64,000 bases of DNA from Burkholderia cepacia GG4 (lineage in GTDB: Bacteria > Pseudomonadota > Gammaproteobacteria > Burkholderiales > Burkholderiaceae): positions 2,666,001-2,730,000 of the forward strand of contig NC_018513.1 of the NCBI RefSeq assembly GCF_000292915.1, written 5' to 3'. The notes beneath the pieces are model-generated. The model worked only from the letters and a program-made list of their open reading frames with translations, did no database searches and was not told the DNA's origin. Of the stretch, positions 19,725-21,495 are shown piece after piece. Position 1 is the first letter of the stretch. Each line of letters starts with the position of its first letter. The translations under genes were made by a program, and so were the position numbers.

Positions 19725-20903
19725 TCAGAACAGGCTCAACTGCATGTCGTCACGCGACTTCGCGCCGGTTGCGCCCGCCGCGCTGCGCTGCGTTGCCGGC
19801 CCGGGCGCCGGCGCGCCGCGAAACTGCGACAGATCGAGAATGCCGTTCGTGCGCTCGTTCAACCCGAGCCGCTTCACGGCCTGGCGGAAACGTTGCCGCA
19901 ACAGGTCGGCCCAGATCCCCTCCCCCTTCATCCGCTTCGAGAAATCCGAGTCGTAGTCCTTCCCGCCGCGCATGTCGCGCACACGGTTCATCACGCGCTC
20001 CGCGCGATCGGGAAAATGGGCGGAGAGCCAGTTCTTGAACAGCGGCGCCACCTCCCACGGCAGCCGCAGGATGATGTAGCTCGCATGCGTCGCGCCGGCG
20101 TCCGCACAGGCTTCCAGCACGCGCTCCATGTCGGGCTCGGTGACGAATGGGATCATCGGTGCAATGCTCACGCCAACCGGCACGCCTGCGTCGCGCAGCG
20201 CGCGAATCGTACGCAGACGGCGCGCCGGCGTCGCCGCCCGCGGCTCGAGCGTGCGCGCGAGATCGGCGTCGAGGGTCGTGATCGTGACCGCGGCCATCAC
20301 CTGCCCGCGCTCGGCCATCGGGGCAAGCAGGTCGAGATCGCGCTCGATCAGCGACGATTTCGTGATCGCGGCAAACGGCAGCCCGTGGTCGTGCATGACC
20401 TGGATCACGCTGCGCGTGATGCGCAGATCGCGCTCGACCGGCTGGTATGCGTCGGTGTTGACGCCGAGCGCGATCGGTTCCGGCACGTAACGCTTCCGCG
20501 AGATCTCGCGCTCGAGGAGTTCGGCCGCATTGACCTTCGCATAAATGCGGCTCTCGAAATCGAGCCCGGGCGACAGCCCGAGATAACTGTGGGTCGGTCG
20601 CGCAAAGCAATAGATGCAGCCATGCTCGCAGCCGCGATACGGATTGAGCGACACGCTGAACGGAATGTCCGGCGACTGGTTGTGCGTCAGGATGCTCTTT
20701 GCGCGCTCCTCGAACACCTGAGTGCGCAGCGGAGCGGGTAGCTCGGCATCGTTGGATTCGTGCGTCCAGCCATCGTCGACCGCCTCGCGCAGCGCCGTTT
20801 CATACCGCCCCTGCAGGTTGTCGACCGCGCCGCGCCCCTTGCGGGGCGCGGGCGGCGCTATCGGAAATTCGTTGTCGGACCGACCATCCATGCGCTCACC
20901 CAT
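19725..20903 (-). CDS. PA0069-family radical SAM protein (SPL-like)
   Basis: 392 residues. The radical SAM cluster motif is CEHGCIYC with C92, C96 and C99, i.e. CX3CX2C, after SLNPYRG. The family belongs with spore-photoproduct-lyase-like radical SAM enzymes; a DNA-related role is plausible but its reaction is not established to my knowledge. ATGs at 20903 and 20891 are both possible; the first is listed. The promoter overlaps a consensus LexA box (20918-20937), which would make the gene SOS-inducible and supports a DNA-damage role. Convergent with the TM2 gene 17 bp away. Confidence 0.9.
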   Translation of the reverse strand: MGERMDGRSDNEFPIAPPAPRKGRGAVDNLQGRYETALREAVDDGWTHESNDAELPAPLRTQVFEERAKSILTHNQSPDIPFSVSLNPYRGCEHGCIYCFARPTHSYLGLSPGLDFESRIYAKVNAAELLEREISRKRYVPEPIALGVNTDAYQPVERDLRITRSVIQVMHDHGLPFAAITKSSLIERDLDLLAPMAERGQVMAAVTITTLDADLARTLEPRAATPARRLRTIRALRDAGVPVGVSIAPMIPFVTEPDMERVLEACADAGATHASYIILRLPWEVAPLFKNWLSAHFPDRAERVMNRVRDMRGGKDYDSDFSKRMKGEGIWADLLRQRFRQAVKRLGLNERTNGILDLSQFRGAPAPGPATQRSAAGATGAKSRDDMQLSLF

Positions 20904-20908
20904 TCGCC

Positions 20909-20955
20909 TGCACCCAATACTGTATATTTATACAGTATTGGGTGCAGCGTGCCAA
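20909..20955 (-). promoter_or_regulatory. LexA (SOS) box over a sigma-70 promoter
   Basis: A perfect 18-bp inverted repeat (20909-20926 and 20929-20946, 2-bp spacer) contains TACTGTATATTTATACAGTA at 20918-20937, matching the CTGT-N8-ACAG LexA consensus and nearly identical to the E. coli optimum. On the minus strand TTGGCA (20950-20955), exactly 17 bp, then TATAAA (20927-20932) forms a promoter whose -10 lies inside the box, so LexA binding would block it. It serves the radical SAM gene starting at 20903. Confidence 0.85.
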
Positions 20956-21006
20956 GGGCGAGATGAGGGGACCGACAAGCGGCCCGGCAGCGGGCCGCCG
21001 CGGCGG

Positions 21007-21495
21007 TCATTCGCCGACCGAAATCGTCAGCGTCTCCTTGATTTCCTCCATCACGACATAGCTCTTCGACTGCACCGCGCCGGGCAGTTGCAACAGGATG
21101 TCGCCGAGCAGCTTGCGGTAGTCGGCCATCTCGCCGATCCGCGCCTTGATCAGGTAGTCGAAGTCCCCCGACACGAGATGGCATTCGAGCACCTCGTCGA
21201 TCTTCATCACTTCGCGCCGGAACTGCTCGAACATGTTGCCGCCCTTGTGGCCGAGCGTGATCTCGACGAACACCAGCAGCGCCGCGCCGAGCTGGCTCGG
21301 GTCGACGCGCGCGTGATAGCCGGTGATGACGCCGTCCCGCTCCATGCGCCGCACGCGTTCGATGCACGGCGTCACGGTCAGCCCGACCTGTTCCGCCAGG
21401 TCCTTCATCGCCATCCGGCCGTCGTCCTGGAGCAGTTTGAGGATGCGGCGGTCGAGCTTGTCGAGCGAGCGTACTGGCTGGCGTTGCGTTCTCAT
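21007..21495 (-). CDS. Lrp/AsnC family regulator, likely controller of dadA
   Basis: 162 residues. Helix-turn-helix (LDKLDRRILKLLQDDGRMAM, then LAEQVGLTVTPCIERVRRME) followed by an effector-binding RAM domain (ALLVFVEITLGHKG). MRTQRQPVRS at 21495 is taken as the start; an earlier frame position at 21531 precedes it. It is divergent from dadA across about 145 bp, the arrangement in which Lrp-type DadR proteins activate D-amino acid catabolism in response to alanine. Confidence 0.93.
   Translation of the reverse strand: MRTQRQPVRSLDKLDRRILKLLQDDGRMAMKDLAEQVGLTVTPCIERVRRMERDGVITGYHARVDPSQLGAALLVFVEITLGHKGGNMFEQFRREVMKIDEVLECHLVSGDFDYLIKARIGEMADYRKLLGDILLQLPGAVQSKSYVVMEEIKETLTISVGE

What the first reader, a model, noticed from the sequence alone, without database searches (positions are those of the whole stretch)
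20909..20955. LexA box exactly over the promoter of a PA0069-type radical SAM gene
TACTGTATATTTATACAGTA is an almost ideal SOS box, inside a perfect 18-bp inverted repeat. TTGGCA-N17-TATAAA on the minus strand places the -10 within it. The gene should therefore be repressed by LexA and induced by DNA damage. Its product belongs with spore-photoproduct-lyase-like radical SAM enzymes, so an uncharacterised DNA-repair reaction is plausible. I recall the Pseudomonas PA0069 gene being listed in the LexA regulon, but this should be verified.
Basis: partly seen in the sequence, partly recalled or inferred. Interest (0 to 1): 0.7.

Follow-up and report, generated by a model that had tools for sequence, protein, structure and literature searches.

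The report
SOS operator in a self-copying palindrome
A DNA-repair-like gene in Burkholderia is probably switched by the SOS repressor LexA, as others had already predicted, but its control site sits in a 40-base mirror-image sequence whose two arms keep changing together in related species, which suggests that bacteria copy one arm onto the other.

Summary
TACTGTATATTTATACAGTA lies at 20918-20937, inside a perfect palindrome with 19-bp arms (20908-20947), over a TTGGCA-N17-TATAAA promoter of a PA0069-family radical SAM gene (NF033668, 469 bits, cut-off 360). Induction was not testable.

What my searches did not find in print is the palindrome's outer part. The 10 bases on each side of the box pair in at least 7 positions in 55 of 59 Burkholderia orthologues (all ten in 43), while their sequence turns over; on a tree 44 pairs changed on both sides at once. 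Paraburkholderia repeats this with unrelated arms. Of 81 other LexA-box-like places in the family, 77 lack such arms; the other four precede UDG or radical-SAM repair genes. G·U and A·C mismatches are about equal in the arms, which argues, though only moderately, against an RNA hairpin. Arms change about as often as their surroundings. Template switching between arms during replication explains this best (about 0.55); selection for a DNA hairpin or cruciform is the main rival.

The parts
20918..20937 (.). LexA (SOS) box TACTGTATATTTATACAGTA
   Evidence: 0 of 100 shuffles; a box of at least 15 of 18 consensus letters precedes the orthologue in 59 of 59 Burkholderia loci (L012 and L013, divergent second copies, left out)
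20908..20947 (.). perfect palindrome, arms 20908-20926 and 20929-20947, 2-nt centre
   Evidence: DNA fold of 20900-20957 -21.7 kcal/mol, z -8.0
20908..20917 (.). outer arm, downstream side (early transcribed region of the gene); covaries with 20938-20947
20938..20947 (.). outer arm, upstream side (within the -35/-10 spacer); covaries with 20908-20917
20950..20955 (-). -35 element TTGGCA
   Evidence: conserved in 55 of 59
20927..20932 (-). -10 element TATAAA, inside the LexA box
   Evidence: conserved in 57 of 59
19725..20891 (-). PA0069-family radical SAM gene (388 aa from the likely start; the longest frame begins at 20903)
   Evidence: NF033668 469 bits, cut-off 360; Radical_SAM PF04055
21007..21531 (-). 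Lrp/AsnC-type regulator gene (named by eye), co-directional neighbour upstream; longest frame, the start may be 21495
   Evidence: adjacent and co-directional in 59 of 59 orthologous loci, 31-93 nt from the box

Best explanation
This is a LexA operator laid over the promoter of a PA0069-family radical SAM gene. LexA bound there blocks RNA polymerase; RecA-driven LexA cleavage after DNA damage frees it. The operator is also the fixed core of a longer palindrome. LexA and the -10 element hold the inner 20 bp nearly constant, so the site can always fold into a short hairpin when single-stranded. I propose that during replication or repair the growing strand occasionally switches template inside this hairpin and copies one arm from the other. 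A point mutation in an outer arm is then either erased or copied into the partner. The arms therefore drift at about the neutral rate but stay complementary, until a lineage loses enough pairing to fall below a threshold. Shown: the box, its conservation, the arms and their concerted change. Inferred: LexA repression and induction, and template switching as the copying step. The enzyme's reaction is unknown; a DNA repair or damage-response role is inferred from its regulation and superfamily.
For: Arms: at least 7 of 10 outer pairs in 55 of 59 orthologues, 10 of 10 in 43. Covariation score 0.478 against 0.169 in shuffles (0 of 500 reach it) and at most 0.135 when slid (42 distinct rows). Among the 55 paired rows, 21 further Watson-Crick pair types over 10 positions, each needing changes on both sides even if haplotypes recombine. 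On a tree 44 double changes against 33 that break a pair; 38 same-branch coincidences, 8.9 expected if arms were independent, at most 16 with slid partners. 20 of the 44 are transversions that cannot pass through a wobble. Mismatches in paired arms: G·U 6 and A·C 4 in Burkholderia, 6 and 9 in Paraburkholderia, together 12 to 13; two terminators of the same genomes give 19 to 4, Fisher p 0.017. Arm columns change 7.6 and 6.2 times on average, the four columns outside the right arm 8.0, PA0069 third codon positions 5.4: no slowing. Paraburkholderia: 86 of 128 distinct rows score 8 or more in gapped arm pairing, 0.15 expected. Arms recur at UDG and radical-SAM repair genes in two other genera. 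Precedent for the copying mechanism: PMC8794818 (abstract and section 8).
Against: No copying event was caught in the act; one genome per species is held. Recombination of whole promoters between species may inflate the 44. Four of 59 Burkholderia have lost the arms (L014, L016, L019, L020), and 90 of 137 Paraburkholderia rows pair fewer than 7 of 10 without gaps. Outside these two genera arms are rare: 4 of 61 PA0069 boxes score 8 or more, though 0.13 are expected. Boxes with equally symmetric cores at other genes have no extended arms, so a symmetric core alone does not start the process. The wobble contrast rests on the etf terminator (14 to 1); the dadA terminator alone (5 to 3) does not differ from the arms (p 0.69). 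Arms at two kinds of radical-SAM repair locus hint at selection.
Confidence: 0.55

Rival explanations
1. The arms are kept by selection for a DNA structure (hairpin in single-stranded DNA or cruciform under supercoiling) that tunes the operator, for instance by competing with LexA or RNA polymerase, so that potentially harmful repair enzymes stay tightly off.
For: Near equality of G·U and A·C mismatches in paired arms; arms at PA0069 in several genera and at UDG and radical-SAM repair genes, but at most 4 of 10 pairs at the ten other box-like loci fetched from this genome, among them lexA, recA, dinB and imuA; very stable DNA hairpin.
Against: Arms change about as often as their surroundings, whereas selection for pairing should slow them; whole lineages do without the arms.
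Confidence: 0.25
2. The arms form an RNA hairpin in read-through transcripts from the upstream lrp gene, acting as terminator, processing site or translation block, while the SOS transcript starts inside the hairpin and escapes it.
For: lrp is adjacent and co-directional in 59 of 59 loci; the -10 lies inside the palindrome, so the SOS transcript should carry one arm only; inside the box a sense U·G is the commonest departure from a Watson-Crick pair.
Against: No clear G·U excess in paired arms (12 to 13), unlike two terminators taken together (19 to 4; p 0.017), though the dadA terminator alone does not differ; no terminator-like site found; distance from box to start codon varies from 25 to 48 nt; in L306 the likely upstream gene is divergent; no Rfam match over its gathering score.
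Confidence: 0.12
3. The apparent covariation is only exchange of whole promoter haplotypes among species, with few real double changes.
For: Burkholderia species recombine (recalled), and a tree of two neighbouring genes was used.
Against: 21 further Watson-Crick pair types over ten positions among paired Burkholderia rows and 26 in Paraburkholderia (counted) each need changes on both sides; slid controls are far lower.
Confidence: 0.07

Closest known systems
LexA (SOS) operators, CTGT-N8-ACAG
   Same: consensus, position over the promoter, box-like sites at lexA, recA, dinB and imuA in the same genome (genes named by eye from their translated starts)
   Different: the ten other box-like loci fetched from this genome have at most 4 of 10 paired outer positions
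SOS-regulated splB (COG1533) of alpha- and beta-Proteobacteria (PMC3323433) and Bacteroidetes (PMC8565304)
   Same: same superfamily, same regulator, Burkholderia included in the 2012 prediction; ten of the 80 named loci carry an alpha-type GTTC-N7-GTTC box instead
   Different: the text I read (passages and section 8 of the first; passages only of the second) does not give the locus, so identity of that splB with this gene is likely but unproved; those passages do not mention the extended palindrome
Template-switch-maintained hairpins and quasipalindrome correction (PMC8794818, abstract and section 8; PMC7202029, listing only)
   Same: stems stay paired through simultaneous double changes; four-nucleotide loop in the predicted fold
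   Different: PMC8794818 treats RNA genes; here the stem core is a repressor operator and promoter, with no clear sign of RNA-level selection
Spore photoproduct lyase (SplB)
   Same: radical SAM superfamily, CxxxCxxC motif
   Different: no conserved fourth cysteine in 20 PA0069-family members; a sequence search of the PDB gave only pentatricopeptide-repeat chains, which I take as spurious

Membership tests
LexA operator | CTGT-N8-ACAG palindrome | tested here: met
LexA operator | overlaps the promoter of the regulated gene | tested here: met
   by sequence; no transcription start is mapped
LexA operator | a cognate LexA is encoded in the genome and its gene carries the same motif | tested here: met
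   L003; named lexA by eye from its translated start, not by a family search
LexA operator | bound by LexA and induced by DNA damage | not testable with these tools
   no expression or binding data available
NF033668 PA0069 family radical SAM protein | score above the curated cut-off | tested here: met
   469.1 bits, cut-off 360
Spore photoproduct lyase | CxxxCxxC cluster motif | tested here: met
   C88, C92 and C95 invariant in 20 sequences
Spore photoproduct lyase | conserved fourth, hydrogen-donor cysteine (recalled) | tested here: not met
   no other invariant or nearly invariant cysteine
Spore photoproduct lyase | repair of 5-thyminyl-5,6-dihydrothymine | not testable with these tools
   needs an enzyme assay
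Template-switch-maintained palindrome | pairs change on both sides together | tested here: met
Template-switch-maintained palindrome | single mutational event that copies one arm into the other | tested here: inconclusive
   double changes on branches as short as 0.002, but recombination is not excluded
Conserved RNA hairpin | G·U favoured over A·C on the sense strand | tested here: inconclusive
   12 to 13 in paired arms against 19 to 4 in two terminators (p 0.017), but 5 to 3 in the dadA terminator alone
Intrinsic terminator of lrp | T-rich tail after the stem | tested here: not met
   no terminator-like site in 20800-21100

The most novel reading that the evidence does not exclude
SOS operators of radical-SAM repair genes carry an extra, shape-only regulatory element: a DNA hairpin or cruciform around the LexA box, conserved purely as complementarity while the bases of its outer arms turn over, and kept in part by the cell's own template switching. 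Damage that stalls forks would then act on the operator twice, through LexA cleavage and through the fold.
Probability: 0.25. Interest if true: 0.78.

Novelty: new variant of a known kind. Interest (0 to 1): 0.55.

Why it matters
Operators are usually read as fixed words. Here a repressor site appears as the anchored core of a palindrome that seems to copy itself, so compensatory change, usually taken as proof of a functional RNA stem, arises at a DNA control site without a clear sign of RNA selection. If template switching is the cause, these loci are natural records of it, and covariation in non-coding DNA must be read with more care. If selection is the cause, SOS control has a structural layer that my searches did not find described.

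Tried and rejected
RNA hairpin between lrp and the radical SAM gene: judged unlikely, not excluded (no clear G·U excess, no terminator-like tail, divergent neighbour in L306). Extended LexA recognition: rejected, because the arms are not conserved in sequence. Generic property of SOS boxes: rejected, 77 of 81 other box-like places in the family sample have fewer than 7 of 10 paired positions. In the same list 8 of 22 PA0069 places have at least 8 of 10, five of them from Burkholderia itself. PA0069 relatives in the PDB by sequence: pentatricopeptide repeats only. Rfam: three sub-threshold microRNA matches. Literature on PA0069 plus LexA: none in the library; three papers hold the string PA0069, and the one opened uses it as a chromosomal insertion site. 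Rv2578c: two papers listed, not opened. PMC12700426 holds none of the splB terms tried. PMC9380542 lists one radical SAM protein in its Streptomyces LexA table (passage). PMC3765255 and PMC7739468 link SplB-like or radical SAM proteins to the SOS response (passages).

Errors of mine, corrected: one search read the wrong side of loci with minus-strand matches (redone). One search had L042 and L065 in the wrong orientation; their outer arms are fully paired, so its outer-arm counts stand (one search gives the same totals). Both were left out of the alignment, which holds 57 of 59. One search's terminator count mixed two terminators; redone per gene. The raw 19 to 4 still includes a few short mis-hits.

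Rows dropped: L012 and L013 (second, divergent gene copies) from the Burkholderia counts, places without the CTCGACA-type context and matches that the output did not list, the second strand of each place. The named loci are the best 80 of 596 hits of a capped scan.

Full report
Observation. The 20-bp LexA box is at 20918-20937, inside a palindrome with two perfect 19-bp arms, the longest arms among 48 perfect palindromes in 464 kb of this genome. The box covers the -10 of a promoter, TTGGCA-N17-TATAAA, with the -35 kept in 55 and the -10 in 57 of 59 Burkholderia orthologues. Downstream is a PA0069-family radical SAM gene, upstream the co-directional lrp. The same genome has LexA-type boxes at genes I read by eye as lexA, recA, dinB and imuA.

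SOS control. The family is found in 61 of 61 Burkholderia genomes searched. A box precedes the gene in 59 of 59 loci read. Beyond the genus it is less general: 20 of 30 loci of a family-level sample and 2 of 30 of a class-level sample reach 14 of 18 consensus letters. Among the best 80 named loci of a capped scan, 48 have a box of this type, 10 an alpha-type GTTC-N7-GTTC box and 22 neither. Two unrelated LexA motifs over the same gene argue for a real regulon member, the argument made for splB in PMC3323433 (section 8 read). A passage of PMC8565304 also calls SplB SOS-regulated in several species. The regulation claim is therefore well supported and already published as a prediction. Induction remains untested here.

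The outer arms. Ten bases on each side of the box pair in at least 7 of 10 positions in 55 of 59 Burkholderia loci, in all ten in 43; L014, L016, L019 and L020 do not. Each of the ten pairs has at least one change on both sides; the covariation score is 0.478, against 0.169 in shuffles and at most 0.135 when slid. Among the 55 paired rows there are 21 further Watson-Crick pair types. On a tree of lrp plus PA0069 DNA, 44 pair changes are double and 33 break a pair. Same-branch coincidences are 38, against 8.9 expected from branch lengths and at most 16 with slid partners.

Paraburkholderia. In 144 genomes of the genus that holds P. heleia (G112), 140 match the operator pattern within 3 mismatches. 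Of the 137 rows I used, 47 pair in at least 7 of 10 ungapped positions and 34 in all ten, with very different sequences; 90 do not, many of them with small offsets. Allowing gaps, 86 of 128 distinct rows score 8 or more where shuffling the right arm expects 0.15. That these rows precede PA0069 was checked by coordinates for only four genomes (G079, G098, G112, G121); for the others it rests on the shared -35 context. In 61 PA0069 boxes from other genera, 4 score 8 or more and 13 score 6 or more, against 0.13 and 2.25 expected. So arms are frequent in two genera and scattered elsewhere.

Specificity. Of 81 other LexA-box-like places in a 70-genome family sample (within one mismatch of the pattern), four have 10 of 10 paired arm positions and the rest at most 6. 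Two precede a gene for a TIGR03915/UDG protein (L304 by profile, with TIGR03915 over and TIGR03914 under its cut-off; L305 by likeness). Two precede a TIGR03916 radical SAM gene (L306 by profile; L307 by likeness). TIGR03916's own name links it to UDG.

RNA or DNA. If an RNA stem were selected, G·U should outnumber A·C on the sense strand. In paired arms they are 6 and 4 in Burkholderia and 6 and 9 in Paraburkholderia. In the dadA and etf terminators of the same genomes, each read in its own sense, they are 5 to 3 and 14 to 1. The pooled contrast has p 0.017, but dadA alone does not differ from the arms (p 0.69), and cells are not independent. This is moderate evidence only. Inside the box, a U·G pair on the sense strand is common, where the -10 fixes the partner base. 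At the most variable outer pair, A-T and G-C are almost equally common (24 and 27 rows), with no G·U, one U·G and one A·C. Twenty of the 44 double changes are transversions. The arms change about as often as the four columns beside them and somewhat more than third codon positions, which fits copying better than selection through broken intermediates.

Mechanism. Template switching that makes and repairs stems, with simultaneous double changes and an excess of four-base loops, is described for RNA genes in PMC8794818 (abstract and section 8 read). The folded operator has a four-base loop. LexA and the -10 fix the core, and the -35 limits the upstream arm. I put 0.55 on template switching, 0.25 on selection for a DNA fold, 0.12 on an RNA hairpin and 0.07 on haplotype exchange alone. 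Why arms occur at two kinds of repair locus is not explained.

Protein. Only three cysteines are invariant in 20 family members, so true spore-photoproduct-lyase chemistry should not be assumed.

Novelty. Searches for template switching with inverted repeats and for LexA with palindromes and cruciforms listed no paper whose title or abstract start concerns LexA operators in covarying palindromes; apart from the papers named as read, I judged from listings. The library is open-access only.

Noticed in passing
L308 about 2560-2890 and L311 2109-2474 (G051 and G014); far ends in L012 and L013: In two Burkholderia genomes the native PA0069 gene is interrupted at the same codon, inside the CxxxCxxC motif. 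Phage-integrase-family genes lie about 200 bp from the break in G014 and about 5 kb from it in G051, where the same stretch also carries type I restriction-modification genes. In G051 the C-terminal remainder (90% identical to the window's protein) begins at the next residue, beside a full-length divergent PA0069 gene (50% identical) with its own LexA box; G014 shows the same layout by family match. It looks like an element that targets an SOS gene and brings its own copy.
   Followed up: partly
L304, L305, L306, L307: LexA-type boxes at UDG or radical-SAM repair genes in two other Burkholderiaceae genera also lie in palindromes, with arms of 10-12 bp beyond the box that differ in sequence between genomes of one genus.
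   Followed up: partly
G018:C4:479989-480822 and G024:C2:3209941-3210774 (L072, L073): A second, distant PA0069-like match with one in-frame stop in two Burkholderia genomes; no LexA box was found in the fetched stretch beside it (best 10 of 18).
   Followed up: no
L306 1555-1769: In this genus the TIGR03916 radical SAM gene and a catalase-like gene (named by eye) diverge from the palindromic box, so LexA might control both.
   Followed up: no
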